Shown: one piece after another, positions 39,328 through 61,437 of the stretch
Layout: each line of letters begins with the position of its first letter
Numbering within the stretch: the first letter of the stretch is position 1
NCBI RefSeq assembly: GCF_003667505.1
Contig: NZ_RCVJ01000136.1
Span: 1-64,000 of the forward strand
Origin: Micromonospora sp. BL4
Lineage (GTDB): Bacteria; Actinomycetota; Actinomycetes; Mycobacteriales; Micromonosporaceae
DNA length: 64,000 nucleotides
Direction: 5' to 3'
Program-made: the position numbers and the translations under genes
The notes under the pieces: generated by a model
The model's database searches: none
The model's input: only the letters and a program-made list of their open reading frames with translations
What the model was told of the DNA's origin: nothing

Positions 39328-39688
39328 CGAAGTCCAGGAACGCGCCGGGGTGCCGGTGCTGGTCTGCGACCCGGCGGGCCCGCCGCTGGCCACCGAACAG
39401 GACGCGCTCGACCTCATCGGCGCGGCCTTTCTCGGCGCCCAGGTGGTGGCCGTGCCGGCCAACCGGCTCGACGAGCGCTTCTTCTCGCTGGGCACCCGCT
39501 TCGCGGGCGACGTGATGCAGAAGTTCGTCAACTACCGGCTGCGACTGGCCGTGGTCGGCGACATCTCGGCGCACCTGGCGGAGAGCTCGGCGCTGCGTGC
39601 CCTGGTACACGAGTCGAACCGGGCCGGGCACATCTGGTTCGTCCCCGACCTCGACGCCCTCGACGCCCGCCTGCGCGCTATGTCGTAG
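39320..39688 (+). CDS. DUF4180 domain protein
   Basis: A 122-residue protein of the DUF4180 family. The signature is DERFFSLGTRFAGDVMQKFV followed by NYRLRLAVVGDISAHLAES and then ALVHESNRAGHIWFVPD. The family is common next to HTH genes in actinobacteria and firmicutes; its role is unknown. It overlaps the upstream HTH gene by 8 bp, and its last 11 bp overlap the convergent OGG-fold gene. Confidence 0.9.
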   Translation: MPDEVQERAGVPVLVCDPAGPPLATEQDALDLIGAAFLGAQVVAVPANRLDERFFSLGTRFAGDVMQKFVNYRLRLAVVGDISAHLAESSALRALVHESNRAGHIWFVPDLDALDARLRAMS

Positions 39689-40316
39689 CCGCCTCGGCCT
39701 CCCTACCGATCGCCATCTCGACCTCGTCCGGCTCAACGCCTCGGGCCTGCGCCTGCTCGGCCGCCCAGCGCAGGTACGCGAGCCACTCCTCCGACAACCA
39801 GTCGGACTGTCGGCCGACGCCGGCCTCGACGGGGAGGCGGCTGGCCACGACGCGGTCGAGGATCAGCGGCTGCACACCGCCCACCCCGCGCCGGTAACCG
39901 ACGAAGTAGAGGACCTTCGTGAACAGTCCCGGCCCCAACCACGGCAGCCGAGCCTGGTTGGGGTCGCGGAATCTGCGGTAGGCCGTGCGCAGCGCGTCCT
40001 CGTCTGGCGCTGACGCGGACATCTCCTCCAGCGCGTACGCCAGACGTTTGCCGTCCGGGTCGGCGCCGAGCGACCTGGCGGCGCGCCACGGCCCGTACCC
40101 GATGGGTCCGTAGCCCCAGATCAGCACGGCGGTCAGCAGTTGGCGGGCGCTCGCCGAGCCGGCCCGGTACGCGTCGGCCACGGCGAAGACGTCGCGCCGC
40201 CAGACGTCGCCGCTGATTGGAAAGTTGTCCGGCCAGGCGTCCGGCGGCAACCCCGCCCGCCACCGGTCGACATTCACGATGACCGGGGCCTGCTCCCCTG
40301 GTAACGGCCTCTGCAT
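39678..40316 (-). CDS. OGG-fold hypothetical protein
   Basis: A 212-residue protein. Segments GDVWRRDVFAVADAYRAGSA, WGYGPIGYGPWRAARSLGAD, and GLFTKVLYFVGYRRG resemble the family annotated as '8-oxoguanine DNA glycosylase OGG fold protein' (helix-hairpin-helix DNA glycosylase-like). The catalytic Lys and the GVGxKVAD hairpin of true OGG1 are not evident, so activity is doubtful. The name is recalled from annotation; a search should confirm it. It is convergent with the HTH-DUF4180 pair, overlapping by 11 bp, and divergent from the next hypothetical gene. Confidence 0.65.
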   Translation of the reverse strand: MQRPLPGEQAPVIVNVDRWRAGLPPDAWPDNFPISGDVWRRDVFAVADAYRAGSASARQLLTAVLIWGYGPIGYGPWRAARSLGADPDGKRLAYALEEMSASAPDEDALRTAYRRFRDPNQARLPWLGPGLFTKVLYFVGYRRGVGGVQPLILDRVVASRLPVEAGVGRQSDWLSEEWLAYLRWAAEQAQARGVEPDEVEMAIGREAEAATT

Positions 40317-42952: not shown

Positions 42953-45256
42953 ATGGACGTGCTCTCGGAAGAGCTCCGTCGTGAGCAGAAGTACTTTGAC
43001 GCGGCGTGGGATCACCGAGAGCGGATGCGTACGAACTTGAGTCTCGCCGCCGGAGCCGCGGCCAACAGTGGTGCCGCCACCCGCATCAAGCAGGACACCC
43101 GGGCTCGGCTCGACCGCATCGGTGCGTCAGATGAGCCTGTCGCGTTCGGCCGGATGGATGACGAGGGCGGCGAGCGCTTCTACATCGGCCACCATGCGAT
43201 CTTCGACGATGACTCTGAACTACTGGTCATGAATTGGCAGGCGCCAGCGGCAGCCCGCTACTACGAGGCCAGTCACGCCGACCCCAGGAAATTGCGGCTT
43301 AAGCGCACCTACGACTGCTCCATGAACCGAATCGCCTCGTTCAGCGACATCGTCTTCGCTCAGCTCGCCGAGGCGGTCGAGGAGCTGGAGGCGTACGAGG
43401 AGATCAGCGACGCGCTGCTCAGCGATCTGGAGAGCAACCGCACCGGCACGATGCAGGAGATCGTGCGGACGATCCAGGCGTCGCAGTTCGACCTCATCCG
43501 TGCCGACGCCGATCAGCTGACGATCATCCAAGGCGGCCCGGGGACGGGCAAGACGGCAATCGCCCTGCACCGGGTCTCCTGGTTGTTGTTCAACAGCCTC
43601 GGCAACCTGACCGCAGACGACATTCTGATGGTGGGGCCCAGCCCGACCTTCACCCGTTACACCCGGCTGGTGCTGCCCAGCCTCGGTGACACCAGCGTCA
43701 CCCAGGTCGATGTGCACCAGTTGCATCCGCCGGTGAAGCGGGGCCGCCAGGACGATCCGGCCGCTGTCAAGCTCAAGGGGGACGGCCGGTTGGCTGGGCT
43801 CGTCCGGCGGGCGCTCTATGGCCGAGTAGGCCCAGCAGAAAGCCAGCAGTGGGTCGAGGTGCAGATCGGGAATCGCACGCTGAGCCTCACCGCCGAGGAG
43901 CTGAAGCCACTGGTGAGCCGCTCCCGCGCGAGCGCTGGCACCTACTCGGAGCGCCGTCAGCTCTTTCGGGAGCTGTTGACCGAGCTCGTTGGATCCCGGG
44001 TGCGGATGGATCGCAGTCGTCTGCGCCTCGCACTGGATCCGGTGATGGACCGGCTCTGGCCGTCCTTCACTCCAGCGTCGTTCCTGCGGGAGCTCTACGG
44101 CTCACGGGACCGGCTGATCGCCGCGGCCGGCGACGAGTTCACGGCACGAGAGGTGTCCGTGCTGCACCGGCGACCGGCCGAACGGCTCTCGGACGAGACG
44201 TGGAGCGACTCCGACCTCGCCGTACTTGACGAGCTCGACCACCTGATCAACGGCGTCAAGGCGGGTTACCTGCACATCGTGGTGGACGAGGCGCAGGACC
44301 TCTCCCCCATGCAACTCCGTGCGATCGCACGCCGATCCCGCAACGGGTCGATGACGGTGGTCGGGGACATCGCCCAGTCGACCGGACACTGGGCGCGCGA
44401 CGACTGGGACGACCTGCTGGACCATCTCCCGGCGGAGCTGCCCCACGTGCTGGAAGAGCTGCACTACGGCTACCGCGTCCCCCGGCAGGTCTTCGACCTC
44501 GCGGCCAGACTCCTACCGATCGCCGCGCCCGACGTCGAAGCACCCCAGGTCGTGCGGGACGGGCCGGCGGATCCAACCATTCACCGGGTAGAAGACGAGG
44601 ATGAGCGGGCCTCGACAGCGGTCCGAGTGGCCATGGACCACGCCTCGCATGGTCGGTCCGTGGCCATCATCTGCCCAGCGTCGGGCCGGGCGGACATCGA
44701 ACGGCAGCTCACGGTCAGGGATGTCGTCTGGCGGGCAGCTTCCGCTGGCGACCTAGGGCCGGGCGTGAACGTGGTCAGCCCGCAGGAGTCCAAGGGGCTC
44801 GAGTTCGACGCGATCGTGGTCGTGGAGCCGGACGACATCATCGCCGAAGACGAGCGTGGTCACCGACTTCTCTATGTCGCTCTCACCCGCACGACGAGGT
44901 ACCTCGACATCGTCGCTCTCCACATTCCGACCGAATTGAGCATAGAGAGGATCGAAACCAGCACGGAGCCGAACTCGAACGCGACCAACGTGGAGGATCC
45001 ACGGCGTCAGGAGGCTGAGCGTTCCACGGTTACTGGTCCCCTCGAGGAACGCGAGTCGGACGGGCGCGTGGCTCCCGCCGCGGAATCGGATACGTCGACG
45101 GTCACGCAGCTGTCACCGCGCCCGGTGTCGCGGCGCTTCGTCGATCTCGGGGCCGAAGAGGTTGTGGCGCTGCTCAAGGAAACAGTGGCACCGAACCTCT
45201 GGCACGCCGTCCTGAACAGAGCCGGTGAGCTGCTCGATCAGGAGTCAGAGCGATGA
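42953..45256 (+). CDS. HelD-type UvrD-like helicase
   Basis: A 767-residue SF1 helicase-like protein of the HelD group. The N-terminal arm (LRREQKYFDAAWDHRERM) is the coiled coil that in HelD enters the RNA polymerase secondary channel. The Walker A is IIQGGPGTGKTAIA near residues 190-203, Walker B VVDEAQDLSP near 443-452, motif III MTVVGDIAQS, and motifs V/VI QESKGLEFDAIV and LLYVALTRTTRY. HelD releases stalled RNA polymerase, and its HelR relatives give rifamycin resistance. A Ser/Glu-rich linker follows the helicase core (about 655-710), which is uncommon. GGGAG lies 6 nt before the ATG. It sits at the left edge of the defence island and is convergent with it. Confidence 0.88.
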   Translation: MDVLSEELRREQKYFDAAWDHRERMRTNLSLAAGAAANSGAATRIKQDTRARLDRIGASDEPVAFGRMDDEGGERFYIGHHAIFDDDSELLVMNWQAPAAARYYEASHADPRKLRLKRTYDCSMNRIASFSDIVFAQLAEAVEELEAYEEISDALLSDLESNRTGTMQEIVRTIQASQFDLIRADADQLTIIQGGPGTGKTAIALHRVSWLLFNSLGNLTADDILMVGPSPTFTRYTRLVLPSLGDTSVTQVDVHQLHPPVKRGRQDDPAAVKLKGDGRLAGLVRRALYGRVGPAESQQWVEVQIGNRTLSLTAEELKPLVSRSRASAGTYSERRQLFRELLTELVGSRVRMDRSRLRLALDPVMDRLWPSFTPASFLRELYGSRDRLIAAAGDEFTAREVSVLHRRPAERLSDETWSDSDLAVLDELDHLINGVKAGYLHIVVDEAQDLSPMQLRAIARRSRNGSMTVVGDIAQSTGHWARDDWDDLLDHLPAELPHVLEELHYGYRVPRQVFDLAARLLPIAAPDVEAPQVVRDGPADPTIHRVEDEDERASTAVRVAMDHASHGRSVAIICPASGRADIERQLTVRDVVWRAASAGDLGPGVNVVSPQESKGLEFDAIVVVEPDDIIAEDERGHRLLYVALTRTTRYLDIVALHIPTELSIERIETSTEPNSNATNVEDPRRQEAERSTVTGPLEERESDGRVAPAAESDTSTVTQLSPRPVSRRFVDLGAEEVVALLKETVAPNLWHAVLNRAGELLDQESER

Positions 45257-45467: not shown

Positions 45468-48400
45468 TCAGTCGTCCCCGGGCCGCAGGTCAACCCTAAT
45501 TTGCGCCAACTCACCCTGCTGCTCCGGGCTGAGCTGGCGGGCCAGACTCCGAAGCAGCTCCTCCTGTCTTGGCTGGCCGAAGGCGATCCGGTACATGGCC
45601 GTTGAATTCAACAGATGCGGCAGCACGGATGCGTCTCGCGTGTAGGGAGCGACCAGCAGGTGCCGCTCGATGCTCGCAGGCCCTTCGAAGACCCAGTACG
45701 GCACGATTTCTGACTCGCCCTCGGGCCGGCACCTTGCTGCGGCTTCGAACATCGATCGCCACGGGTCCCCGTCAGGGTTCGAAGGCAAGCCGCAGCGGTG
45801 TGCCACGTTCTTCCGCACGGCATGCCCCTTGTAGCGGTGCACCCGGCCTTCGCGCTGCTCCAGATCGACCGGATTGTGCGGCAGGTTCCAGTGCACCACG
45901 GCATGGCAGTAGAGATGGAAGTCCAAGCCCTCCTGACCGATGGAAGTGGTGGCCAACACAAACGGCCAGAACGGCGAATTGAACGCTTCGGAGACGCTTT
46001 CCGCACGTACCTCACCATTCATTTCGTCCCGTCCACGGCCGAAGCGGACGGCGTACCGACCGCGCATGTGGCGAAGGTCCAGACCCTTCGCCGCATCGAC
46101 AACGTCCACCTGATACGGCACGGCCCGGAGTGTCGCTGCACGAAAAACATGGTCGGCGAGGTCTGGCAGAGCCTCCGCGTCGAAGCGCTGCCACTCGGTC
46201 ACGACGTGCAGGTACTCGTCGAGCACTGCCTGAAGGTTGCCGCGGGCGGCATAGCTCAGGCACTCGCGCCAGAACACGCTGCTGTCCTCGCTGGCGACGA
46301 CCGCGGCTGCCTCCGGACCGTTGAACATGGCCCGGATTCCTGAAGCGATGCGTGCCGCCGCTGGCAGCGACATCTCTGGCGTCGCTAGCGGTAGCACCCG
46401 CCGAATGGCACGGAGCGCGCACACTGCTGGGGAGGCGAGTGACACCTCGGCAAGAACCTCGACCAGGTCTCCCGGAGGAGAACCGACGTCCCGCGGCAGC
46501 CCACCCGACGCCACGATGCGCTGCCAGTCATGCATCCGGCTCCGATAGGTCTCCGCCTCATCGCCCATCCGGCTGTCAGCCAGATCTATCGCGGCGGTCG
46601 CTTCTCCCGCTATTTGTCGCTCGTGGTCCAGCAGCAGCATTGCCAGCCAGTACCACCTCGGATCGGTCGGCCCACTCCGGTGCCCTGCCGTCAGCCTGTC
46701 GATCCGACCGCGCAACAGCCGCTGCGCACCGTCCGAAACCGTTTGCCAGGTTGGCAGTTGGCTGGCGCTCACGCCCATCGCGAGCGGATCGACCGCGTCG
46801 GCCAGGGCCAGGCTCGGATAAAGCAGGAGGTAGGTGGTGTCGGCCTCGAGACGCAGCGGGCGAGCCGCCCGGCTCACCGCTTCGGTGTACGTCACGTCGG
46901 GTCGCGCACCGGTGGTCGCGCGTTCGACCTCGTAGCTCAGCATCGCGCTGATCGAGTTCGGTACGGCATGCCAGGCAGAGAAGACCAACTGCTTGGTGAA
47001 TGCCCGCGCCACCGGCGACTCGAAGGGGCCGTCAGCCCGGTAGTACGGCGCAGATGCCGGCAACCACAGCAGACGATGTGTCGCAGGACCCGCAGCGGAG
47101 TTCAGGAGTTGACGCAGTCGGGCGTGGCCTGGCTCTAACTTCTGGTAGGTGTCTACGTCGGACCAGGGGATGGTGGCGGTGGTATGTGCCAGGACTCCGG
47201 TGATCGCTGCCGGCTCGTCGGCTATCGAGATCGCTTCCTGCAGTGCCGCCTTGACCTGATAGTTCTCCCGGTTGAGGAAGCTGAGCAGGTAGGGAGTCGA
47301 CTTCCACAATTCGATCAGATCGTGATCGCGAATGCCCTCCCCCAGGGGAATTCGGCCTGCCAGTCGACTAGCTGCGAGGTAGCCGCGGATCTCCTCCGCG
47401 TCCGGCGCCGGCACGCCCTGCGTCACGGTGCGCAGCATGCCGTCGCGGTCTGCGGTGCTCGCCAGGCGCTCGGTACGCACCATCACCGTTCGCAGCCGGG
47501 CGGAGATGGCATCGGTCACCACCCTAACCGGGCCGAGGCCGTCGTCGGGAATGCGGGTCAGCGCCCACCGCAACTGACGAAGGTCGGCGGCGAGCCCTGC
47601 CGCACTGGGTTCGCCAGCCAGGAATCCGATGGTACGCAGCAGGTCACGGTAGTGATCATCCTCGCCTGCGGCCCGTTCCACGTCCGTGGTGTGCATCCGG
47701 TACGGCGTAGCCGAGAGGAGGAGGGTGCGCGTGGCCGCAAGGTTTTTCCTGCCGCCGCCTCCCGTGAGCAGGTTTTCCAGCAGCGACTGGATCTCGGGCT
47801 CGGTGCTGTGCAGCAGATCGGCGAAGCGTTGGAACTCGTCGAAGATGACCAGATCGGGACGGAGCAGTTCGGCACCTGTGGCGGCCATCGCCCGGCGCAC
47901 GCACCCGATGAACTCGTTGCGCACCGCGTTGGCATCCGGATCCCGGCGAGACGTCTTCCGGAACTCGCTGTCGAGCCAGTCGAGCGTTTCCCGCATCCAG
48001 GACCCGCTGGCCTCCCGGTACCGAGCGTTCACTGCACTGAAGTGCCGCGCGAAGATGTGCTTGGCCCCCCACACCGGCTTCAACGGCCCGCGAGCAGCGG
48101 CGAACCTCTCCCGTAGGTCGCGCAGGCTGCCGTCACGGTCGCTGATGTTGCCCGCAAAGGCCCGGTAGACGCCCTTCCGCTCGGTTGCATCTGTGCCGAG
48201 CGTACTTGCCAGAAACTCCAGTGCGACAGCGCGTTCGGCCAACGTGCCGAGGGCGGTGCCGTGCTGGAGTGACGTGCCAGGGGTGAGCGCAACGAGGTTG
48301 ACGCCCCTCGGTTGCGCCCCGGGTTGTCCCGGCAACAGGGAGAGCCGGCCAGCAGCTGCCGTAGTCGATACCCCATGCGGGCTGAGCTTGCGGAGGTTCT

Positions 48401-48644
48401 GACGGGCGATCGCGGTGTTGGAGCAGACGTAGATGATGTCGATTCGCTGGTCGCCGAGTTCGCGCAGATGAGCGATTGTCTGAGCAACCACAGCTCGAGC
48501 CACCAGGGTCTTGCCGAGTCCAACCTCGTCGGCGACGAGGAATCGGGTGGCCGGCTCAGGATCCAGATACATCCGGCGGAAGACGTACTGTGCGGTCCTG
48601 CGCTGGAAGTCGGTGAGTCCGGCGAGTGCGGCGGCTTCAGCCAT
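45468..48644 (-). CDS. SF2 helicase (SNF2/DrmD-like) of a putative defence operon
   Basis: A 1058-residue DEAD/DEAH-type helicase. The Walker A ADEVGLGKT is at residues 38-46, the Walker B FDEFQ near 266-270, and LLLSATPYRMH follows. The C-terminal half has SIGQEGLDFHLYCHAVVHWN and NPVDLEQREGRVHRYKGHA near residues 895-940, the arginine-finger motif VI of Snf2-like proteins. About 500 residues between the two cores form a large insertion. Relatives are found in phage-defence loci with PLD nucleases. The ATG at 48644 has AGGAGG 6 nt upstream. It is the last gene of a five-gene operon and overlaps the PLD gene by 8 bp. Confidence 0.88.
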   Translation of the reverse strand: MAEAAALAGLTDFQRRTAQYVFRRMYLDPEPATRFLVADEVGLGKTLVARAVVAQTIAHLRELGDQRIDIIYVCSNTAIARQNLRKLSPHGVSTTAAAGRLSLLPGQPGAQPRGVNLVALTPGTSLQHGTALGTLAERAVALEFLASTLGTDATERKGVYRAFAGNISDRDGSLRDLRERFAAARGPLKPVWGAKHIFARHFSAVNARYREASGSWMRETLDWLDSEFRKTSRRDPDANAVRNEFIGCVRRAMAATGAELLRPDLVIFDEFQRFADLLHSTEPEIQSLLENLLTGGGGRKNLAATRTLLLSATPYRMHTTDVERAAGEDDHYRDLLRTIGFLAGEPSAAGLAADLRQLRWALTRIPDDGLGPVRVVTDAISARLRTVMVRTERLASTADRDGMLRTVTQGVPAPDAEEIRGYLAASRLAGRIPLGEGIRDHDLIELWKSTPYLLSFLNRENYQVKAALQEAISIADEPAAITGVLAHTTATIPWSDVDTYQKLEPGHARLRQLLNSAAGPATHRLLWLPASAPYYRADGPFESPVARAFTKQLVFSAWHAVPNSISAMLSYEVERATTGARPDVTYTEAVSRAARPLRLEADTTYLLLYPSLALADAVDPLAMGVSASQLPTWQTVSDGAQRLLRGRIDRLTAGHRSGPTDPRWYWLAMLLLDHERQIAGEATAAIDLADSRMGDEAETYRSRMHDWQRIVASGGLPRDVGSPPGDLVEVLAEVSLASPAVCALRAIRRVLPLATPEMSLPAAARIASGIRAMFNGPEAAAVVASEDSSVFWRECLSYAARGNLQAVLDEYLHVVTEWQRFDAEALPDLADHVFRAATLRAVPYQVDVVDAAKGLDLRHMRGRYAVRFGRGRDEMNGEVRAESVSEAFNSPFWPFVLATTSIGQEGLDFHLYCHAVVHWNLPHNPVDLEQREGRVHRYKGHAVRKNVAHRCGLPSNPDGDPWRSMFEAAARCRPEGESEIVPYWVFEGPASIERHLLVAPYTRDASVLPHLLNSTAMYRIAFGQPRQEELLRSLARQLSPEQQGELAQIRVDLRPGDD

Positions 48645-50445
48645 GGATGTCCTCCTGGGCAACGTGCCATACGGCGTCCCAGAGCCCGTCCAGGCCATCG
48701 GGCAATTGCCCGCCGCCATCCCGGACCGTCTTGAGCAGGTCGGCCACCTCACGCAGGCGCCCGGGATCCTTGGCGAGGGCTCTGAGCATCACCTCTGTCA
48801 GCGGTAGCCGCTCGAGGTCCGCGCCGGTCCAGTCGTACGCGCCGACGCGATCCACCTCTTCGCCGTTCAAGGGCAGCTCGTCGTCGGCGAGCAGGGCAAG
48901 CAGGTAACGCACCAGGCGGTGCGCATCCCCCACCAGGTCCGCGATGAGCCGCTGCCTCCGATCTTCGGGCTCGCCGTGCAGGGTGCACCTGACGACAAAG
49001 ACGGTGCTCAGCCCAGCCAGCGTCAGTTCGATGACCAGGAACGCGGAAAGGTTGGTGAGTGTGGCTGAAGTGCAGAACACCAGCCGGCCCTCGGTGTCGA
49101 ACACCGACGGCTGGTCGAGTTGCGCGACTGTCGCCGGCCGACAGCGCACCTCGACCCCGGCCGGAAGCGGCAGCGGTTTGTCGGACCGGTAAGTGACCTC
49201 GTAGCGGCCGGGCTCGGACTCGGCAACGGTGGCGGTGAAGGGGATGGCGGTCACGGCTCGGCGTACCTCGTCGAGCTCGTCTCGGTTGTCGTCGGCCGGT
49301 TCGTGGCCGTCCTCGGCCTCCCAGCTCAACAGCAGGTCCCGGAAGGTGCGCCTCTCGGGATCCCCCTCCCTGCGCTGTTGCAGTAGAGCCCGCACGGAGT
49401 GCCGTTCTGCTGTCGTATCCAGTTGCAGCAGAACCTCGACGTTGCGCTCGAAGGCGGCGCCGGTGGCGTTGGCGCTTCCGGTCCACCAGCTCGTTCCGGT
49501 GGCATCGTCAGTGACGTAAAGCTTGGCGTGCAGGCCGTCCTGCACGCGCCGAGGGTCGTCACGGCTCGCCCGCGGCACGTCGGGCGCATCATCTAGGACA
49601 GCGGAGTTCAGGGTGAAGCATTCGTATGTGCTGGCCGCCTGTCCGGCCGCAGAGAGGGCTTCCGGCCGGGACATCAGGGCTCGTCGTGTCGTCGCCGTCG
49701 GCAGGCGCTGCAGCGTCGTCGAGCTGAGGAACGGGGACACCACCAGGAGCCGGTGGCAGCTCTTCGGGAAGGGCCATGGCCCTTCGTCGAGGCCGAACAC
49801 GTGCAGGCGGAGATTACGAAACCCCTCCGGGGGCGCGAATCGCACCGCATCGAGCTCGTCGGCGAGGGCGGCGATCGGCTTGTGCCGTGCGTCGGGCAGT
49901 GACGTGACCGACAGCGCGGGCAACCCGCGGACCAGGTCACCGATCCCCGCGAGCCGCTGACCGCCGGGGTCGGATTCCAGGACGGTGATCGTGTCCCAGC
50001 ACCGGTCAAAGGTGAGGTTGCGGGTAGCGACAAGCAGCCGGAACGTCGGGCGCCCCGCCTCGTCGACATGGCGCAGTGCCCACAGCTTCGGGTGGAATGC
50101 GCCGCCACGGGGAGCGGTGACCGGCACGACCGCCTGCTCGATGAAGCCGAGGAGGGCTCTGCGACGGTGCAGGGGAGGGGCGATCTGCGCGGCATCGCAG
50201 AAAAGCGTGATCCGGTCGGCAGTACGGTGCAGCGCGTCGAGCAGGCCGATGGGTGTGAGCCCTTCCGGGGCCTCATCCTCGGAGTCGCCCGATTGGCCCG
50301 CGTCGAGGAGCGCGTGCGCCGCAGGAACCATGAGCAGGGTGGTCAGATTCAAGGTGTAGGTCGTGCCCACCGCGCAGTCCAGTCGGGTTCCGGGCAAGGG
50401 TCGGAGAGCGTCGACGAGAGTCCTTCGGTTGTCAGGCCGCACCAT
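48637..50445 (-). CDS. phospholipase D-family (HKD) protein of the defence operon
   Basis: A 602-residue protein with two HKD-type motifs: HPKLWALRHVDEAG near residue 120 and HAKLYVTDDATGTSWWTGSA near 305, the latter followed by GSANATGAAFERNVE, the classic PLD nuclease form. PLD family members in this setting act as DNA or RNA nucleases. A C-terminal 250-residue part (beta-sandwich-like, then helical) is not recognised. The start at 50445 (ATG GTG CGG) is preceded by AGGAAAGG; longer starts would overlap the next gene more. It overlaps DUF6361 by 14 bp and the helicase by 8 bp. Confidence 0.85.
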   Translation of the reverse strand: MVRPDNRRTLVDALRPLPGTRLDCAVGTTYTLNLTTLLMVPAAHALLDAGQSGDSEDEAPEGLTPIGLLDALHRTADRITLFCDAAQIAPPLHRRRALLGFIEQAVVPVTAPRGGAFHPKLWALRHVDEAGRPTFRLLVATRNLTFDRCWDTITVLESDPGGQRLAGIGDLVRGLPALSVTSLPDARHKPIAALADELDAVRFAPPEGFRNLRLHVFGLDEGPWPFPKSCHRLLVVSPFLSSTTLQRLPTATTRRALMSRPEALSAAGQAASTYECFTLNSAVLDDAPDVPRASRDDPRRVQDGLHAKLYVTDDATGTSWWTGSANATGAAFERNVEVLLQLDTTAERHSVRALLQQRREGDPERRTFRDLLLSWEAEDGHEPADDNRDELDEVRRAVTAIPFTATVAESEPGRYEVTYRSDKPLPLPAGVEVRCRPATVAQLDQPSVFDTEGRLVFCTSATLTNLSAFLVIELTLAGLSTVFVVRCTLHGEPEDRRQRLIADLVGDAHRLVRYLLALLADDELPLNGEEVDRVGAYDWTGADLERLPLTEVMLRALAKDPGRLREVADLLKTVRDGGGQLPDGLDGLWDAVWHVAQEDIHG

Positions 50446-51718
50446 CGGCCACCTTTCCTGCAAGCCCGCCTTGCAGATCAGAAAGGAACTGTCGTACGGT
50501 CGGCCACCGGTACCTGAGTGGCGCGCCACCAATCGCATCGCCATCCCACGACTGAAGCGCCGGCTGATAGCTGAGCCGAGCGTAGCGGCCCTTTAGCGCG
50601 AGTTCCTGCTCCGTGACCCGCCGCCGCAACCCGGCATCTTCCAGCGCCGTTCGTGGATCCTTGACGGCGGCGCCGATCCAGTGTTCGAGGAAGGCACGGG
50701 TGCCGGGCCGCGCCCGGCCACGGCATCCGGAGACGACGCCCCAGAAGGCGTCAGACCGCGACCACCAATCCTGAAGGGAGTCAGACCGAGCCGTAATTTT
50801 CCCGATCCAGGCGTCGATCTCGCTGGCGACCCAGTCATCGAGATGGGACGTCTCGGCGCAAAGCAGCTTTGCCGCTCGCCGGGAAAGCAGAACGTTGTAG
50901 AGCAACTGGGCCCCGAAAGTGATGTCTGAAAAGTTGCGGGCATGCGTCAGCATCTCGCTGACAGGCGCCGGGAGGGTGAGTAGCGATTCGGACCACGGTT
51001 CTTCCTGGTCGTACCAAGCAGCAGGGTCCTCGGCAAGGCACGCGAGCATGGATGGCGCGCCTGCCTGACCTGCGCCAACGGCACGCGTGGATCGCATCCG
51101 GTCCCGCAGATAGCAGGCCTCGTCTCTGGTCAACTGCATGCTCAGGCCCGTGGCGGGATATTCGTCCGGCGGGTCGGGGAGCCCGGGGTCCCAGGGCGCC
51201 GGAGGGCCGCCGAGCACGACGTTCTCGTCGTCGCGGATAGTCCGGTCTCCGCGACCCGGTCGAGTCACCAAGTCGCGGTAGTCGGCGAGGGTCATGCGCG
51301 GTTGGGTGCGAACGCCCCAGGCGCCGAGGCCGTGCCAGTAGACCGAGGCCGGCAGGCGGGTGAGCTTTCTACCAGCGCGGTAGCCGATCACACCCTGATT
51401 GGCCCCGATCGGACGCAGTGCCTCGATCAGTCGCCACTCCTGCTCACGCAACCGGTCCTGGAACGCCTTGCGGCTGGGTCGCTTGGCCGCGACGGCGTAA
51501 CAGGTCCACGGCACGAAAAGGAAATAGCGCAGGCGAGTCTGGATGGTCGACGTACCCGGAAAGAGAGCTTCCGAAAAGGCGTCACGGATGGTGCCGGTGC
51601 CGATCGGATCGAAGGTTTCCTTGTCGTCGAGTGCCGCGATCGCCTCACGGATCCGCCGACTTTGGTCGTCGTCCATGTCTAGCCAGGAAATCGTCGACAC
51701 CGCGGAGGTGGAAATCAT
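50432..51718 (-). CDS. DUF6361 family protein
   Basis: A 428-residue protein of the DUF6361 family, recognised from its start: ISWLDMDDDQSRRIREAI, then DPIGTGTIRDAFSEALFPGT and RLRYFLFVPWTCY. The rest is helical with PLTWYDQEE-like and RTYLRDRM-type segments and a C-terminal Arg-rich helix bundle. No catalytic motif is visible to me. Families such as this are known mainly as neighbours of PLD and helicase genes in defence loci. GGAGAGG is 5 nt before the ATG, which overlaps the previous gene by 4 bp (ATGA). Confidence 0.8.
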   Translation of the reverse strand: MISTSAVSTISWLDMDDDQSRRIREAIAALDDKETFDPIGTGTIRDAFSEALFPGTSTIQTRLRYFLFVPWTCYAVAAKRPSRKAFQDRLREQEWRLIEALRPIGANQGVIGYRAGRKLTRLPASVYWHGLGAWGVRTQPRMTLADYRDLVTRPGRGDRTIRDDENVVLGGPPAPWDPGLPDPPDEYPATGLSMQLTRDEACYLRDRMRSTRAVGAGQAGAPSMLACLAEDPAAWYDQEEPWSESLLTLPAPVSEMLTHARNFSDITFGAQLLYNVLLSRRAAKLLCAETSHLDDWVASEIDAWIGKITARSDSLQDWWSRSDAFWGVVSGCRGRARPGTRAFLEHWIGAAVKDPRTALEDAGLRRRVTEQELALKGRYARLSYQPALQSWDGDAIGGAPLRYRWPTVRQFLSDLQGGLAGKVADGAA

Positions 51719-52461
51719 TCGCGCCTCTCCTGTACCAGGCTTGGGCTTGGCGATGCTGCATTCATGCGCTGGGCCGCTTCGCGTTCCGCCCACCGGGCAA
51801 CGTCGCCGTCCTCGGTGACAAGGAAGGCGTCAATGAGCAACGCCCCGAGACTGCGCTGCGTCTCTGCGAGGAGAGACCGGTAGCGGCCGAAGTCCGGGAA
51901 CGCCACCGCTACCGCGTCATGCGGATGCTTGTCCCGCAGCCGAACCGCTTTCAGGAGCGCGTGCGCGTACCAGTGGCCGGCCTGCGTGCTGGCCTGCGTC
52001 GGCTTGGCTTCGCCCGTCCGCCGCGGGTCGACGTACGACCTCGACGGGTATCCCTTGACCTCGACGTGTAGCCGCACCTCGCCGCGGCAGGCTTCGATGT
52101 CGGTGCCCTGTTGCCTCGTGGCAGTATTCATCACCTGGATAAGTGACCATCCCTGCTGGACCAGCCAGCTGCACAGGCGCGCCTGAACGTTGCCCTCCCA
52201 GAACCACTCCCGGGTGGCGTCCAGCGAGGCGGCGGCAGCCGGTCCCGGGTCGCACACCGCGGAGTCGGTCGCGCCAGCGCCGATCCTGTTGACGATGACG
52301 CCGGCGCTGTCATCACGAACCAACCGACCCTGCTCGGCGAGTGTGCGGCACCGCTGGTTGACCTGCTGGTGCAACTTCCCAGTTCGCTTGGCGAGCTCAG
52401 CGTCGGACAGGCCATTCGGGTTCTGGCGCAGCAGTTCGACGATGTCCTCTGCGATTGTCAT
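51715..52461 (-). CDS. winged-helix plus PD-(D/E)XK nuclease-like protein
   Basis: A 248-residue protein with two domains. Residues 1-50 form a MarR/LexA-like winged HTH (IVELLRQNPNGLSDAELAKR and GKLHQQVNQRCRTLAEQGRL). Residues about 85-160 carry the PD-(D/E)XK core: WEGNVQARLCSWLVQQGWSL, then QQGTDIEACRGEVRLHVEVKG, in which Asp, Glu and Lys of the D-(E)xK pattern are present. This is probably a site- or structure-specific DNA nuclease. Codons overlap the DUF6361 gene (ATGA), and its ATG lies 4 bp after the stop of the DUF6308-like gene. It is in the middle of the five-gene operon. Confidence 0.82.
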   Translation of the reverse strand: MTIAEDIVELLRQNPNGLSDAELAKRTGKLHQQVNQRCRTLAEQGRLVRDDSAGVIVNRIGAGATDSAVCDPGPAAAASLDATREWFWEGNVQARLCSWLVQQGWSLIQVMNTATRQQGTDIEACRGEVRLHVEVKGYPSRSYVDPRRTGEAKPTQASTQAGHWYAHALLKAVRLRDKHPHDAVAVAFPDFGRYRSLLAETQRSLGALLIDAFLVTEDGDVARWAEREAAQRMNAASPSPSLVQERRE

Positions 52462-52465
52462 GTGA

Positions 52466-53119
52466 CTAGCCCTCCGGGCAGCCGAATCGGCTGTGGTGCC
52501 AGATGACGATGTCGGCAAGCCGGAGGACCGACAGTTGCCGACCATCCGGCGTTCGGACGCCCTCGCTGAACTCGGACAGCCACTCGTGGTTCGCCTTGAG
52601 ATCCTCCAACAGGGCCGCGAAGAAGTCCGCTGGTCGTTCCCTCGATGTCCCATAGAAGTTGCGTAGAACGCTGTCGTAGAGCGGAACAAAGTGGGGACGG
52701 AGCCGGTGCAAGACCTTGCAGACGGCGACCGCCGTCCATTCGGGCACTTCACTCGTCAGCGTGTTCGCATCCCGCAGGAGCCGGAAGGCGTCGTCTTCGA
52801 TGGAGCGGAGCGTGAGGAACTGCGGGTCGGAGGGTGTGGGTTCTGGGGACGTCTGATCCAGGACCTGTTGCATCGCCTCCCGCAGCCTCGTCGCCGCACT
52901 GGGACCGGGTTGGAACAGGGGGATGACTTCAGCGTGGCCGAGCCGGAGGCTCAACAGATTGCCAGCGAGACAGTCCAGGGGAGTCAATCGATCCGGCGTT
53001 GTGTACCACCGGTCGTAGCTACCGAACGCGAATCCAGCCGATGGGTCGATGTAAGCCGACAGGTGTTGGTCGGCGCACCCCCGCAATAGACCAATCGTCG
53101 CCATGGTGTGGTTCGGCAT
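52466..53119 (-). CDS. DUF6308-like protein, first gene of the defence operon
   Basis: A 217-residue protein. The key segment is VCKVLHRLRPHFVPLYDSVL (about residues 149-168) followed by RNFYG, which matches the actinobacterial DUF6308 family in my memory, with an N-terminal GFAFGSYDRWYTTPDRLTPLDCLAGNLLSL (given here only as its key features: FGSYDRW and TPLDCLAGNLLSL). No enzymatic motif is seen. GGGGGAG lies 7 nt upstream of the ATG at 53119, so transcription of the whole five-gene operon probably starts a short distance to the right. The family name needs a search. Confidence 0.7.
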   Translation of the reverse strand: MPNHTMATIGLLRGCADQHLSAYIDPSAGFAFGSYDRWYTTPDRLTPLDCLAGNLLSLRLGHAEVIPLFQPGPSAATRLREAMQQVLDQTSPEPTPSDPQFLTLRSIEDDAFRLLRDANTLTSEVPEWTAVAVCKVLHRLRPHFVPLYDSVLRNFYGTSRERPADFFAALLEDLKANHEWLSEFSEGVRTPDGRQLSVLRLADIVIWHHSRFGCPEG

Positions 53120-53733: not shown

Positions 53734-53997
53734 TTACCGGCGTGGGCCCTCATCGGTGGCCCCGCAGGGGCCGACGTGGTCGTCGGGGCGCCAGCAGCGG
53801 CCGGCCCCGTCGAGCTTGGCGTCACACCAGATTCGGGTACGCAGGAACTGGCGATCCTCCTCGCTGAGGGTGGTCTCGCCGAAGTCGATGGCGGTGACGT
53901 GGCCGAGCGAGTAGCGCAGGGCTGCGGCGAGGGTGATGGCCTCATCGAGGCTGGTCAGGGTGGTGGGGAGGTGGATGATCCAGCGGGGTGAGGTCAT
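53734..53997 (-). CDS. 87-residue hypothetical protein of the cassette
   Basis: A small protein starting MTSPRWIIHLPTTLTSLDEA. It has a helix TLAAALRYSLGHVTAIDFGE and a Cys-rich end (WCDAKLDGAGRCWRPDDHVG followed by PCG), in which three Cys and one His could bind zinc. It overlaps the DivIVA-like gene by 4 bp (ATGA), so the two are coupled. Function is unknown. Genes of this kind often sit beside GntR regulators in actinobacterial integrative elements. Confidence 0.65.
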   Translation of the reverse strand: MTSPRWIIHLPTTLTSLDEAITLAAALRYSLGHVTAIDFGETTLSEEDRQFLRTRIWCDAKLDGAGRCWRPDDHVGPCGATDEGPRR

Positions 53998-54257
53998 CGC
54001 TGCCACCGGCTGTTCGGTGAACCTTGATCTGAGTGACGGCAGCCGATGTGCCGCGACTGCCACTGCCGCAGCGCCTGGCGGATGCGTTCGGCCTCGGTGT
54101 TCGCCGTGCTCAGGTCGCGGTGCAGACGTTCGAGTTCGTCGGCTACCCGGTTGAGGTAGTCGCGCACCTGAGCGGGGTCGAGGCCGCGCCAGCGCGTGTC
54201 GAAGGAGGCAATGCGGGCGTGGTGTGGGTGCAGGCGTACTCCGGTCACGTAGATCAT
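53994..54257 (-). CDS. DivIVA-domain small protein
   Basis: An 87-residue protein with a DivIVA-like N-terminal motif. VRLHPHHARIASFDTRWRGL and DPAQVRDYLNRVADELERLH match the pattern of a DivIVA-type membrane-curvature segment plus coiled coil. It ends in a charged tail. DivIVA proteins of this very short form are common in actinobacterial mobile cassettes and are probably not the tip-growth DivIVA. It overlaps its neighbours by 4 bp on both sides (ATGA). Confidence 0.8.
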   Translation of the reverse strand: MIYVTGVRLHPHHARIASFDTRWRGLDPAQVRDYLNRVADELERLHRDLSTANTEAERIRQALRQWQSRHIGCRHSDQGSPNSRWQR

Positions 54258-54507
54258 CGCTGCGGTGCCTTCTGCTCGGCGGTCAGGGCGCGGATCTGAC
54301 GGTTGCTGAGGCCGCGTTGGTTTAGGCTCCGGCGGCCCCAGCGGTGCAGGCGGCAGGGGTGGGGTGCGCGGTCGTTGCAAGACGGCATGCGGTCGGGCCA
54401 CTGCTCAGCGCGTGCACGGTGCCCGCCGTGACGGCAATGCTGACGTCTTCGGCAGTGACGTGGGGCGGTAGGGGCAGTTCACCGAGAATCTCGTCGACCG
54501 AGTCCAT
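54254..54507 (-). pseudogene. frameshifted copy of the PCRLHRWGRR protein
   Basis: The ATG at 54507, preceded by AAGGAGG, opens MDSVDEILGELPLPPHVTAED in one frame, but after HA (near 54408) the true sequence goes on in the next frame (AEQWPDRMPSCNDRAPHPCR and LHRWGRRSLNQRGLSNRQIR) to a TGA at 54254. Compared with the intact relative at 5115-5582 (PIDQVLGEVPVPAPLTPEDV and CRNDGASYPCRLHRWGRR), a single base has been lost. As read, the in-frame product would end early in a TAA at about 54322. The cassette's first gene is therefore broken. Confidence 0.8.
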
Positions 54508-54854
54508 GGCCCTCCTTGATCGGTTGGTTGCGGCGCCGAGGCGGGCGGGTCGGTCGGTACGACCGCGCGTCCGTACCGACCGGAGCCCAGCACCCACCCT
54601 GGGCCTGCTTCCTGCTCGCTCGCCGCTAGGCGGCCGAGTCACGTGTTCGGCGTCGGAGCAGCGCGCGTCGGCCATGAACTCTGGTATCCGCGCCGGCGGT
54701 AACCGCTGCTCCGACGAAGTCAGGGACCTCAGTGCCTAGCTGGGGTCTTTCTCGCCTTCGCTCCCTACCGGCATTGCTGGTAAAGTCACCGTTGCCCTTG
54801 AAGTTCTCCTGGCTGCCGTGATCAGATGTGTGGGCCTAGCTGGGAGTACTTCGC
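54508..54854. promoter_or_regulatory. divergent control region with an exact 11-bp direct repeat
   Basis: The 347-bp spacer contains GCCTAGCTGGG twice, at 54734-54744 and 54834-54844, exactly 100 bp apart. The second copy overlaps the ribosome-binding site of the GntR gene. The region is relatively AT-rich. Two identical sites near a GntR gene fit autoregulatory binding. Confidence 0.55.
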
Positions 54855-55109
54855 ATGCCCGCACCACGAAAGTTCGAGCCGCACTACCGGCGAATCATCG
54901 CCGACATCAGGGAGCGCGTCACCTCCGGCGAGTGGCCGCCCGGCCACAAACTGCCGTCCACCAAGACGCTGGCCGAGATGTACGAGGTGGGCAGCCAGTC
55001 GACTGTTCGGCAGGCCGTGACCATTCTCATTGAGACCGGAGAGCTGTACGGCCACCAGGGATTAGGCGTTTTCGTCGCCGACCGGGCCGGCAGACAGTCA
55101 GAAGGCTGA
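54855..55109 (+). CDS. small GntR-family regulator
   Basis: An 84-residue protein made almost only of a GntR winged HTH: PHYRRIIADIRERVTSGEWP, then PGHKLPSTKTLAEMYEVGSQ and STVRQAVTILIETGELYGHQ. There is no effector domain. Regulators of this form control transfer or maintenance genes in actinobacterial integrative elements and similar cassettes. GGGAG lies 8 nt before the ATG. It is divergent from the cassette genes, and two direct repeats lie in the spacer. Confidence 0.9.
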   Translation: MPAPRKFEPHYRRIIADIRERVTSGEWPPGHKLPSTKTLAEMYEVGSQSTVRQAVTILIETGELYGHQGLGVFVADRAGRQSEG

Positions 55110-55453: not shown

Positions 55454-55785
55454 TACCGGCAGGAGTCCTGCCAGCGGGCCCTCCGATCCTCTCCGGCAAG
55501 CTGGACGAGGTCGGCCGACCTCAGGACTCGAACAGCGAAGTTTGCTTGGAGCGACGACTGCTTTGAGCTGGCAACATGGACAAGGTCAACCCTGTGAGCT
55601 ACAGCAGTAGGACCTCCGACGGCTGCTCAAACGAGGCGTCAACTTCCTGCCTATAGAAGGTAGACGTTCCACCGATGGAAGCGGCAACTCTCCGGGATAG
55701 GACACCGCAAGGTTGTCCGACACGAGTGATAGGGATGACGCGTGCAGGAAACATGGTCGCCGCGACGGGGTGCGCGAGCGTGGCG
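55454..55785. other. 332-bp junction before the Vsr gene
   Basis: No clear gene. It spans from the lost ATPase to the start of the Vsr gene and would contain the promoter of the Vsr-ATPase operon. Alternative in-frame starts of the Vsr gene (ATG at 55735, 55753) lie here. Confidence 0.35.
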
Positions 55786-56259
55786 ATGACCAGCGACTCT
55801 GGGAGGCCACCCGCTGGTCGGCCTGCTCCATTGAGTGAAGCGGTCTCCAACCAGATGAAGCGAATGCGCCGGGCCTCCACCAAGCCCGAGCTACTCATCC
55901 GCCGAGAACTGCACCGCCGCGGTCTGAGGTTCCGGATCAACCATCCTGCGCTGCCGGGACGACCTGACATCGCCTTCACCAAAGCACGTCTGGCGGTCTT
56001 CGTTGATGGGTGCTTCTGGCACCAGTGTCCGAAGCACGGGATGATGCCGAAGAACAACCGTGAGTGGTGGCAGGCGAAGCTGCGTCGAAACGTCGAACGG
56101 GACCGGGAGAAGGACGCGGCACTGACGGCGCTGGGCTGGCAGGTTCGGCACTTTTGGGAACACGAGGACCCGGCGGCCGTGGCGGAGGAGTTGGAGCAGA
56201 CTTGGCGGCATTTGCGGACACCGCCGGCTCCTGTTTCAAGATCACGACGTAGGTTGTGA
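55786..56259 (+). CDS. very-short-patch-repair (Vsr) family endonuclease
   Basis: A protein of about 157 residues of the Vsr family. The signature is RASTKPELLIRRELHRRGLR, then GRPDIAFTKARLAVFVDGCF, WHQCPKHG, and NNREWWQAKLRRNVERDREK. The Asp in GRPDIAF and the His residues in GCFWHQCPKH match the catalytic Asp and metal/His site of Vsr. The classic role is nicking at T:G mismatches left by deamination of 5-methylcytosine, which fits the adjacent C5 methyltransferase. In MORC/Z1 loci, Vsr-like enzymes may serve as the effector nuclease. The start is uncertain among several ATGs. It is followed in 42 bp by ATPase 1. Confidence 0.88.
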   Translation: MTSDSGRPPAGRPAPLSEAVSNQMKRMRRASTKPELLIRRELHRRGLRFRINHPALPGRPDIAFTKARLAVFVDGCFWHQCPKHGMMPKNNREWWQAKLRRNVERDREKDAALTALGWQVRHFWEHEDPAAVAEELEQTWRHLRTPPAPVSRSRRRL

Positions 56260-56301
56260 CATCCTGGTCGTCACCAGGGACGACTTGACGGAGGAGGGCG
56301 T

Positions 56302-57606
56302 ATGCCCGGCAAGACGTGGTTCGACGTCGCACCCTCGGCTGCACGCCTGACGAACTCGCTGCGCGACATCGGTTACGACTTCCCGACCGCAGTGGCGGAC
56401 ATCGTCGACAACAGCATCGCCGCTGGCGCGTCGCGGGTGGAGGTGATGATCGAGTTCGCTGGGTCAAAGACGCGGGTGTACATCGCTGACGACGGGCGCG
56501 GCATGTCTCCCGGAGCGCTGCTCGAGGGACTCCGACTGGGCACACGTCGCACGTACAAGGCGGGCGAACTCGGCCGCTACGGGCTGGGGCTGAAGACCGC
56601 ATCCCTCTCCCAGTGCCGCTCGGTGGCTGTGATTTCCCGGAGCACCCCCGACGTCGTGCGGACCTCAGCCCGAGTCCTCGACCTTGACATCGTCGAGGAG
56701 TGGGACCAGTGGGTGGTGGTCGACCCTGGCGCGGATCCGGATGTTGCCAGAGCCCGCCAGTGGCTGGCCGAAGGGACGGGAACCGTCGTCCTCTGGCGCA
56801 ACCTCGACCGCGTGCTCCCTGAGAACCGCCCCGAGGGAGGTTGGGCGCGCCGGCGACTGGAAGCGCTGGCGACGAAGACAGCGGAACACCTAGGGATCGT
56901 TTTCCATCGGTTCCTGGAAGGGGTGGGCGGACTCGCCCCGATCGTCATCACTGTCAACGGCCAGAAGGTACGACCGTGGAACCCGTTCGCTCCTGACGAG
57001 GACGGTCGTTCTGAGCTGCCCGCACAGCGCTTCGAGGTCGCCGTCGGCAACGTGTCCGGACACGTTGACCTACGCCGTTTCATCCTGCCGTCCCGTGACA
57101 GGTTCTCCAGTCCTAGCGAATTTGAGCGACTTTCCGGGCCACTGAACTGGAACCGACAGCAGGGGCTCTACGTCTACCGCGCCGACCGGTTGGTGCAGTG
57201 GGGCGGCTGGAATGCCATCCGCGGCATCGACGAGCACACCAAGATGGCCCGGGCTTCGCTCGACTTCAGCACGGACCTCGACTCCGCCTTCAACATCAAC
57301 GTCGCGAAGATGCGGGTCTCACTGCCAGCCCAGCTGCGCCAGATGCTGGAGGCGCCGGTCAACGAGCTGTGCCTCTACGCCAATGACGCCTACCGCAAGA
57401 GCGCCCGGGTAAAGGCACGGCCCTTGCCACAGGACCTGAACGCGTCCGCCGACGTCCGGTCGGCCACCCAGGCGGCGACGACCACCGGGATCGCCCTGAG
57501 AGCGGCAGCGATGCAGTCCGGCGAGTGGGCCGCCTGGCAACGAATCGCGGCGACCCTGCGCAAGGACGCCCCTGAGATCGCCCAGTCGTTGGGATTGGAG
57601 CCGTGA
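56302..57606 (+). CDS. GHKL/MORC-like ATPase 1
   Basis: A 434-residue protein with an N-terminal GHKL ATPase domain. The N-box is DIVDNSIAAGA (residues 33-43), the G1 box DDGRGM (63-68), and the G2 box LGRYGLGLKTAS (90-101), the pattern of MutL, Hsp90 and MORC ATPases. The rest (about 200-434) resembles the transducer (S5) domain, with GLYVYRADRLVQWGGWNAIRG near 285-305. GGAGGAGG is 5 nt before the ATG. It is in an operon with the Vsr gene and convergent with the methyltransferase. It resembles ATPase 2 (59912) in both length and motifs. Confidence 0.9.
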   Translation: MPGKTWFDVAPSAARLTNSLRDIGYDFPTAVADIVDNSIAAGASRVEVMIEFAGSKTRVYIADDGRGMSPGALLEGLRLGTRRTYKAGELGRYGLGLKTASLSQCRSVAVISRSTPDVVRTSARVLDLDIVEEWDQWVVVDPGADPDVARARQWLAEGTGTVVLWRNLDRVLPENRPEGGWARRRLEALATKTAEHLGIVFHRFLEGVGGLAPIVITVNGQKVRPWNPFAPDEDGRSELPAQRFEVAVGNVSGHVDLRRFILPSRDRFSSPSEFERLSGPLNWNRQQGLYVYRADRLVQWGGWNAIRGIDEHTKMARASLDFSTDLDSAFNINVAKMRVSLPAQLRQMLEAPVNELCLYANDAYRKSARVKARPLPQDLNASADVRSATQAATTTGIALRAAAMQSGEWAAWQRIAATLRKDAPEIAQSLGLEP

Positions 57607-57625
57607 GCCGCTGACGGACCCTGGC

Positions 57626-61390: not shown

Positions 61391-61437
61391 CGGCCCTACC
61401 GCCGCCGACCGCACATCAGATCAACGGGGAGGGCCAC

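What the first reader, a model, noticed from the sequence alone, without database searches (positions are those of the whole stretch)
45468..53119. Five-gene overlapping operon: DUF6308-like, wHTH-nuclease, DUF6361, PLD nuclease, SF2 helicase
The five genes have overlaps of 4, 14 and 8 bp and one gap of 4 bp, so they work as a unit. Two nuclease folds (PD-(D/E)XK and PLD/HKD), a large Snf2-like helicase and two unknown families in one operon is a strong signature of an anti-phage system. I cannot tie it with certainty to a named system; I have only a weak memory that Azaca (ZacABC) may have related helicase parts.
Basis: partly seen in the sequence, partly recalled or inferred. Interest (0 to 1): 0.85.

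Follow-up and report, generated by a model that had tools for sequence, protein, structure and literature searches.

The report
Azaca defence operon with extra genes
This is a known kind of bacterial anti-virus gene set (Azaca) that here carries two extra genes, one predicted to be shaped like a DNA-repair enzyme that removes bases and one that looks like a DNA-cutting enzyme, which may widen what it can attack.

Summary
The operon is real, with the stated coordinates and overlaps. The new part is genes 1 and 2, unmatched in PADLOC and NCBIfam. Gene 1 (DUF6308) is predicted to have the HhH-GPD DNA-glycosylase fold (ranks 1-24, best Z 6.7), but sequence comparison is not significant. Gene 2 is a winged helix plus a Hjc-like PD-(D/E)XK nuclease. 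Both are usually elsewhere, yet DUF6308 lies beside zacABC in 3 of 20 full-length Azaca loci of the family (once on the other side) and the nuclease in 2 of 20; the two also pair without Azaca in one genome. Other Azaca loci carry other genes in the same 5' place, chiefly DUF429 (12 of 30 genomes). Best reading: Azaca with exchangeable accessory modules, here a putative base-excision protein and a nuclease. No activity is shown; stacked independent defence genes remain a serious rival. New variant of a known kind.

The parts
52466..53119 (-). DUF6308 protein (217 aa), predicted HhH-GPD DNA-glycosylase-like fold; accessory gene 1
   Evidence: Pfam PF19827 1.1e-20; AF2 model pLDDT 89.7; structural rows 1-24 all HhH-GPD glycosylases, Z up to 6.7; Lys135, Asp149, Arg200, Asp203, Trp207 invariant in 21 of 21 aligned members
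51715..52461 (-). winged helix + Hjc-like PD-(D/E)XK nuclease (248 aa); accessory gene 2
   Evidence: HTH_24 0.0011 (under its cut-off) at residues 5-45; Hjc matched by 3 of 13 family members, not by this one; Glu134 and Lys136 invariant, Glu89 and Asp121 nearly so, in 13 sequences
50432..51718 (-). ZacA (DUF6361, 428 aa), mostly helical model, no solved-structure relative found
   Evidence: PADLOC ZacA 4.6e-106; Pfam PF19888; AF2 pLDDT 87.5; no significant PDB match
48637..50445 (-). ZacB (602 aa), two-repeat PLD-type nuclease
   Evidence: PADLOC ZacB 3e-148; both HxK pairs and the two Asn invariant in 72 of 72 sequences; the Asp of the second HKD is Asp in 36 and Glu in 30
45468..48644 (-). 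ZacC (1058 aa), SF2 helicase/translocase
   Evidence: PADLOC ZacC 4.5e-293; Walker A GK in 77 of 78 (one row gapped), DEF.R, SAT, QE..D.H and QR.GR..R in 78 of 78

Best explanation
An Azaca anti-phage operon whose conserved core (ZacA, ZacB, ZacC) has picked up two accessory genes. Core, inferred from families: ZacC moves along invading DNA using ATP, ZacB cuts it with its PLD active site, and ZacA is a helical scaffold or regulator. Accessory, inferred: DUF6308 is a monofunctional DNA-glycosylase-like protein that flips out, and probably excises, an unusual base in phage DNA. This leaves abasic sites or marks the DNA. The winged-helix Hjc-like nuclease cuts DNA at or near such sites or at branched structures. 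The nicks, gaps or stalled forks then load ZacC/ZacB. Shown here: gene content, conserved motifs, predicted fold of DUF6308, association of each extra family with Azaca in separate ZacA clades. Not shown: any enzyme activity, any substrate, any complex, any defence phenotype.
For: Azaca identity of genes 3-5 with conserved catalytic motifs. The only close relative found (G436, L120) keeps DUF6308-ZacA-ZacB-ZacC at 68, 68, 70 and 74% identity, so DUF6308 travels with the core there. In a distant ZacA branch (G413, L161; tree) a DUF6308 protein, 41.5 bits against a cut-off of 27.3, lies 43 nt after the zacC stop. The nuclease family also lies about 180 nt upstream of zacA in G476 (L121), again in another ZacA branch and with a different N-terminal domain. 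In G448 (L122) DUF6308 and the nuclease stand in the same order, same strand, about 185 nt apart, without Azaca in 19 kb, so the two may be a module. DUF6308 model: rows 1-24 are all HhH-GPD enzymes. In most family members the distance from the glycine hairpin to the invariant Asp equals that from the hairpin to the catalytic Asp in this genome's own endonuclease III. DNA glycosylases of another fold are proven phage defences: Brig1 (PMC11078745, passages) and Brig3, in an operon with the accessory hydrolase BapA (PMC13160076, passages).
Against: Profile comparison of DUF6308 with EndoIII, MutY and OGG-like families is not significant (E 0.32, 0.11, 0.036; controls 0.68 and 0.87). Foldseek's best E is 0.29, and Z 6.7 is below the tool's own guide values of 8, or about 13 for helical bundles. 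The Lys nucleophile position of bifunctional glycosylases is Val131. The glycine hairpin of the family is not kept in the window protein itself. Most DUF6308 and nuclease genes looked at are not beside Azaca, and the DUF6308-nuclease pair of G448 has no Azaca, so the extras may work alone. G436 lacks the nuclease. Only the window has both extras with Azaca. Two placements on a tree could also be one old gain and many losses. Catalysis, and coupling to the core, are untested.
Confidence: 0.52

Rival explanations
1. Stacked independent defence genes: DUF6308 and the nuclease are stand-alone defence genes (alone or as a pair) that merely share a promoter with Azaca, as defence islands stack systems. 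ZacABC works without them.
For: DUF6308 and the nuclease stand together without Azaca in G448 (L122). In other lineages the 5' neighbours of zacA match other systems: OloA/OloB of Olokun in L030 (L039 has homologues of both), and PADLOC single-gene candidates PDC-S44 for DUF429 and PDC-S02 for the L028 nuclease. ZacABC without such partners is annotated on pESA3 and a Halomarina plasmid. The nuclease family lies beside a type I-U CRISPR locus in Thermus and away from Azaca in Nocardioides and Pimelobacter.
Against: Both families occur beside Azaca in two separate ZacA branches each and, for DUF6308, on different sides of the core. In the window the two 5' genes are 4 nt apart and the second overlaps zacA by 4 nt.
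Confidence: 0.36
2. DUF6308 is not a base-excision enzyme but a base-modifying or non-catalytic base-reading protein on the HhH-GPD scaffold. It guards host DNA or reads a phage modification for the core.
For: Val at the Lys nucleophile position; the glycine hairpin is lost in the window copy. A phage base-modifying enzyme (8z2n) appears at rank 25, Z 3.5.
Against: The catalytic-position Asp149 and Lys135 are invariant in 21 of 21. Monofunctional HhH-GPD enzymes such as MutY and AlkA also lack that Lys (recalled; the MutY motifs agree).
Confidence: 0.25
3. Ordinary Azaca in a defence island; the two upstream genes are chance neighbours with no role.
For: The island is rich in defence genes: Vsr, an MTase, two MzaB-like ATPases and MzaC beside it. 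The excess of close same-strand genes 5' of zacA over 3' of zacC loses significance after clustering relatives (p 0.07).
Against: Rough arithmetic, not a call: 30 DUF6308 and 18 nuclease places in 300 genomes over an assumed 6,000-7,000 genes per genome gives well under 0.01 expected adjacencies in 20 loci; 3 and 2 were seen. Island enrichment, and distant DUF6308 copies such as that of G413 which one search does not list, would raise the expectation.
Confidence: 0.12

Closest known systems
Azaca (ZacABC)
   Same: All three core proteins, their order and tight packing, PLD and SF2 helicase motifs
   Different: Divergent clade: apart from G436 (68%) the best-scoring ZacA relative found is 40% identical (short segments reach 43%). 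Two extra 5' genes that match no PADLOC model
Brig1 / Brig3-BapA glycosylase defence (PMC11078745, PMC13160076; passages read)
   Same: Possible logic: a base-excising enzyme used against modified phage DNA; Brig3 has an accessory gene in its operon
   Different: Brig1 and Brig3 are described as uracil DNA glycosylase superfamily proteins and protect without a helicase-nuclease core; DUF6308 is modelled as mostly helical and HhH-GPD-like
DISARM (DrmC, DrmD)
   Same: PLD protein and SNF2-like helicase
   Different: Only motif-level hits (DrmC 9e-05; DrmD 6e-14, helicase C-terminal stretch only), far below NCBIfam's curated cut-offs
Hachiman (HamAB), PMC12278908 (one passage read, plus the abstract start in search listings)
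   Same: Nuclease plus SF2 helicase; in Hachiman the helicase detects DNA damage and liberates the nuclease, a plausible model for ZacC
   Different: No HamA/HamB model among the hits of genes 1-5; ZacA has no matched fold
DUF429 as the 5' partner of Azaca in this family
   Same: A nucleic-acid-enzyme fold directly before zacA; DUF429 is an RNase H-like family placed in a clade with RuvC and other resolvases (PMC3985635, passages)
   Different: Belongs to a different Pfam family from DUF6308 or the Hjc-like nuclease; found with a distant ZacA clade

Membership tests
Azaca | ZacA (DUF6361) present | tested here: met
   PDLC03828 4.6e-106, profile 3-394 of 396
Azaca | ZacB, PLD protein, present with its motifs | tested here: met
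   PDLC03829 3e-148; HxK and Asn of both repeats invariant in 72 of 72
Azaca | ZacC, SF2 helicase, present with its motifs | tested here: met
   PDLC03830 4.5e-293; motifs conserved
Azaca | order zacA-zacB-zacC, adjacent, same strand | tested here: met
   same order in three annotated plasmid loci
Azaca | protects against phage | not testable with these tools
   needs infection assays
HhH-GPD DNA glycosylase (for DUF6308) | HhH-GPD fold | tested here: inconclusive
   Rows 1-24 all HhH-GPD, Z 6.7 to 3.5, 132-157 residues aligned; but Z under 8 and Foldseek E 0.29
HhH-GPD DNA glycosylase (for DUF6308) | sequence match to a known HhH-GPD family | tested here: not met
   No Pfam HhH-GPD or OGG hit; hhalign E 0.036-0.32
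HhH-GPD DNA glycosylase (for DUF6308) | catalytic Asp at the conserved distance from the hairpin | tested here: inconclusive
   Asp149 invariant 21 of 21; same spacing as own-genome EndoIII in most members; read from sequence, no superposed coordinates seen
HhH-GPD, bifunctional lyase subtype | Lys nucleophile in the hairpin | tested here: not met
   Val131 at that position, by the sequence reading
PD-(D/E)XK nuclease (gene 2) | E...D...ExK core motif | tested here: met
   Glu89, Asp121, Glu134, Lys136; Hjc matched by 3 of 13 members, best 1.7e-4, the window member itself by none
DISARM | DrmA, DrmB, DrmC or DrmD at full length | tested here: not met
   genes 1-5: only partial helicase or PLD-motif hits, below NCBIfam cut-offs

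The most novel reading that the evidence does not exclude
Azaca has an exchangeable accessory slot at its 5' edge (in G413 the 3' edge) that supplies the trigger or substrate for the core. The slot holds DUF429, AddAB-like, NucS-like, Mrr/GIY-YIG-like genes, or, here, an HhH-GPD-type glycosylase plus a Hjc-like nuclease. This clade would be a glycosylase-coupled helicase-nuclease defence, a kind that I did not meet in searches: modified phage bases are excised and the resulting abasic sites license ZacC/ZacB to destroy the genome.
Probability: 0.22. Interest if true: 0.78.

Novelty: new variant of a known kind. Interest (0 to 1): 0.5.

Why it matters
Azaca is listed in print as a system of unknown mechanism (PMC10482375 and PMC12926258, passages). 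Recurrent partners are a handle on mechanism: they suggest that the core acts on DNA that another enzyme has marked, nicked or unwound, which can be tested gene by gene. If DUF6308 excises bases, it would add a second glycosylase fold to phage defence beside the Brig proteins and link base-modified phages to a helicase-nuclease system. The names DUF6308 and DUF6361 returned no paper in the full-text library.

Tried and rejected
Rejected: DISARM, Dpd or BREX membership (only motif-level helicase and PLD hits). A fixed five-gene system: contradicted by L120 (no nuclease in 20 kb), L121 (nuclease, no DUF6308 detected; contig ends inside zacA) and ZacABC without such partners (the plasmid gene tables are incomplete).

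Weak or negative results: DUF6308 against solved sequences, none at E 1 alone and one chance row with the profile. Gene 2 against solved sequences, only chance rows; AF1548 (1y88) at E 1.5 is not evidence. Profile comparison with EndoIII, MutY and OGG-like families not significant. ZacA model confident but without structural relative, best Z 4.4; this is no proof of a new fold. DUF6308 not found in plasmids or phages at 1e-5. ZacC patterns not found in viral contigs. The two DUF6308 copies at 47% identity in G698, and one in G846, have no Azaca within the fetched 15-19 kb. The class search gave DUF6308 matches in 46 of 296 genomes, mostly at E 1e-3 to 1e-6. Some of the 16 of 300 nuclease matches cover only the winged helix (G335) or a short stretch (G455).

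5' slot statistic: close same-strand genes 5' of zacA in 28 of 62 assessable loci, against 18 of 79 3' of zacC (Fisher p 0.0065; paired 20 to 5, p 0.004). Collapsing relatives at 55% ZacA identity gives 12.6 of 28 against 10.2 of 43 clusters (p 0.07; paired 10 to 3, p 0.09); at 45%, 3.9 of 7 against 5.4 of 21 (p 0.17; paired 5 to 0, p 0.06). So the general slot claim is suggestive only. L121, the plasmid loci and the short loci were left out of that count. A first clustering that also used ZacC merged nearly everything and was dropped. DUF429 is not strictly tied to Azaca: of 13 copies at 74% identity or more in 151 genus genomes, 10 are those beside zacA and 3 (G047, G639, G378) have no zacA in the 17 kb fetched. 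Of the 12 genomes with DUF429 beside zacA, three have only zacA fragments (G015, G248, G445). The apparent DUF429-ZacA fusion in L163 follows a shift of reading frame and may be an assembly error. Some slot genes have no evident link to DNA work (an alpha/beta-hydrolase-like gene, weak hits, in L181-L185; a glycosyl hydrolase before L177).

Rows dropped: alignment A1 holds 20 of the 22 DUF6308 hits plus L161 (L112 and L115 left out); A2 holds 13 of 15 distinct nuclease proteins (short L095 and L099 left out). Of the 20 full-length Azaca loci of the family, L121 shows no 3' side and L165 reaches the contig end within the operon. Gene calls came from a home-made GC-frame caller, so neighbour starts are approximate. 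(a pattern count in two genomes) had no bearing and was wasted.

Full report
OBSERVATION. They sit in a block of lower GC (about 0.66, against 0.70-0.76 over most of the first 40 kb), beside other defence-type genes (Vsr, a cytosine methyltransferase, two MzaB-like ATPases and MzaC).

CORE IDENTITY. PADLOC models name genes 3-5 ZacA, ZacB and ZacC over nearly their full length (4.6e-106, 3e-148, 4.5e-293). The PLD residues and helicase motifs are conserved across the sampled relatives (72 ZacB and 78 ZacC sequences including the window). This is Azaca. A ZacA match was found in 22 of 397 genomes of the order and 30 of 354 of the family; a few of these are near the threshold. The window's copy is divergent: apart from G436 (68%), the best-scoring ZacA relative found is 40% identical. 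Azaca's mechanism is listed as unknown in two papers whose passages I read (PMC10482375; PMC12926258).

GENE 1, DUF6308. AlphaFold2 on 21 sequences gives a confident, mostly helical model (pLDDT 89.7). The structural second look puts HhH-GPD DNA glycosylases in ranks 1-24, best Z 6.7, rmsd 4.7 over 153 residues; other folds appear at Z 3.5 and below. Foldseek alone is not significant, with MUTYH on top at E 0.29. In most family members the hairpin and the invariant Asp (149 here) have the same spacing as in this genome's endonuclease III. The Lys nucleophile is replaced by Val131, so at most a monofunctional enzyme is expected. Profile comparison is not significant. I take the fold as likely and the activity as a guess.

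GENE 2. A winged helix is followed by a PD-(D/E)XK domain with Glu89, Asp121, Glu134 and Lys136; 3 of 13 family members match Hjc. N-terminal domains vary within the family: DUF7662 in 4 of 13, DUF7669 in 2, MarR-like winged helix in 2. It looks like a nuclease with exchangeable DNA-binding parts.

ARE THE EXTRA GENES PART OF IT? DUF6308 matched in 28 of 300 family genomes and the nuclease query in 16 of 300, some of the latter only in part. Most lie elsewhere: zacA was within the 1.5 kb flanks at 2 of the 20 and 2 of the 18 loci fetched. Yet among the 20 full-length Azaca loci of the family, three have DUF6308 next to the core: the window, G436 (L120, 5') and G413 (L161, 43 nt after the zacC stop, 41.5 bits). 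Two have the nuclease: the window and G476 (L121, about 180 nt 5' of zacA). On the ZacA tree the window and G436 form one clade (support 1.0), while G413 and G476 lie elsewhere. So each association seems to have arisen twice, although an old gain with many losses is not excluded. In G436 all four shared proteins are 68-74% identical to the window's, as expected if they are inherited together. The nuclease is absent from the fetched 20 kb there, so it is optional. In G448 (L122) DUF6308 and the nuclease stand in the same order about 185 nt apart, with no Azaca gene in 19 kb. This suggests that the two can form a module, and that this module does not need Azaca.

A WIDER PATTERN. Other Azaca loci have other genes in the same 5' place. 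DUF429, an RNase H-like family (PMC3985635, passages), lies there in 12 of the 30 ZacA-positive genomes of the family. A NucS-like nuclease gene ends within 10 nt of the zacA frame in L028 and L058; a gene with a weak GIY-YIG hit, preceded by an Mrr protein, in L065. A UvrD helicase with a nuclease domain lies there in L059, and a PD-(D/E)XK protein with a UvrD helicase, AddAB-like in my reading, on a Bradyrhizobium plasmid. Genes matching Olokun's OloA/OloB lie there in L030, and homologues of both in L039. A gene with weak alpha/beta-hydrolase hits lies there in five genomes of another family, L181-L185. ZacABC without such partners also exists. The excess of 5' over 3' partners is significant on raw counts but not after collapsing relatives. 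I therefore claim repeated association with two families, and only suggest a general slot.

MECHANISM. Inferred: the core translocates on and cuts invading DNA; the accessory proteins mark or break the DNA first. Brig1 and Brig3 show that base excision alone can stop phages and that a glycosylase can be paired with an accessory gene (PMC11078745, PMC13160076; passages). No activity, substrate or complex has been shown for this operon. The main rival is that these are stacked independent defence genes under one promoter; the G448 pair and the Olokun and PADLOC-candidate neighbours fit that reading.

VERDICT. Azaca core: near certain. Accessory genes functionally linked: more likely than not. 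DUF6308 as a base-excising partner: possible. New variant of a known kind.

Noticed in passing
window 55675-64000: Second defence cluster beside Azaca: Vsr endonuclease (+), two MzaB-like ATPases (56302-57606 and 59912-61390, +), a cytosine methyltransferase (57626-59644, -) and MzaC/Z1 (61438 on, +).
   Followed up: partly
window 42953-45256 (+): HelR/HelD-like RNA polymerase recycling helicase (NCBIfam 1.5e-101, below cut-off), convergent with zacC.
   Followed up: no
window 39678-40316 (-): OGG-like putative 8-oxoguanine glycosylase (PF21790, 150 bits); found in 6 of 31 genomes, own included.
   Followed up: partly
window 53734-55109: Small ORFs between the operon and Vsr, one that reads like a GntR-type regulator (54855-55109, +) and one DivIVA-like, in a low-GC block; they resemble parts of actinomycete mobile elements (recalled, not tested).
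   Followed up: no
L122:9217-10999 (-): DUF6308 and the Hjc-like nuclease side by side without Azaca in G448, same order as in the window; a possible free-standing two-gene module.
   Followed up: partly
L163:8554-10548 (-): DUF429 and ZacA read as one 665-residue frame in G630, after a shift near the end of DUF429; true fusion or assembly error.
   Followed up: partly
L030:3012-6816, L039:2413-6256: Genes matching Olokun's OloA/OloB (L030; homologues in L039) end within 10 nt of the zacA frame in two planctomycete records.
   Followed up: partly
L247:931-13155: Bradyrhizobium conjugative plasmid: PD-(D/E)XK protein and UvrD helicase (AddAB-like in my reading) packed directly before zacABC.
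   Followed up: partly
L252, L253: A PLD + SF2 helicase pair distantly like ZacB/ZacC near more distant DUF429 copies in two genus genomes; perhaps a sister system.
   Followed up: partly
L243:4995-5636: The winged-helix + Hjc-like nuclease lies beside a type I-U CRISPR locus on a Thermus plasmid, annotated as a MarR regulator.
   Followed up: no
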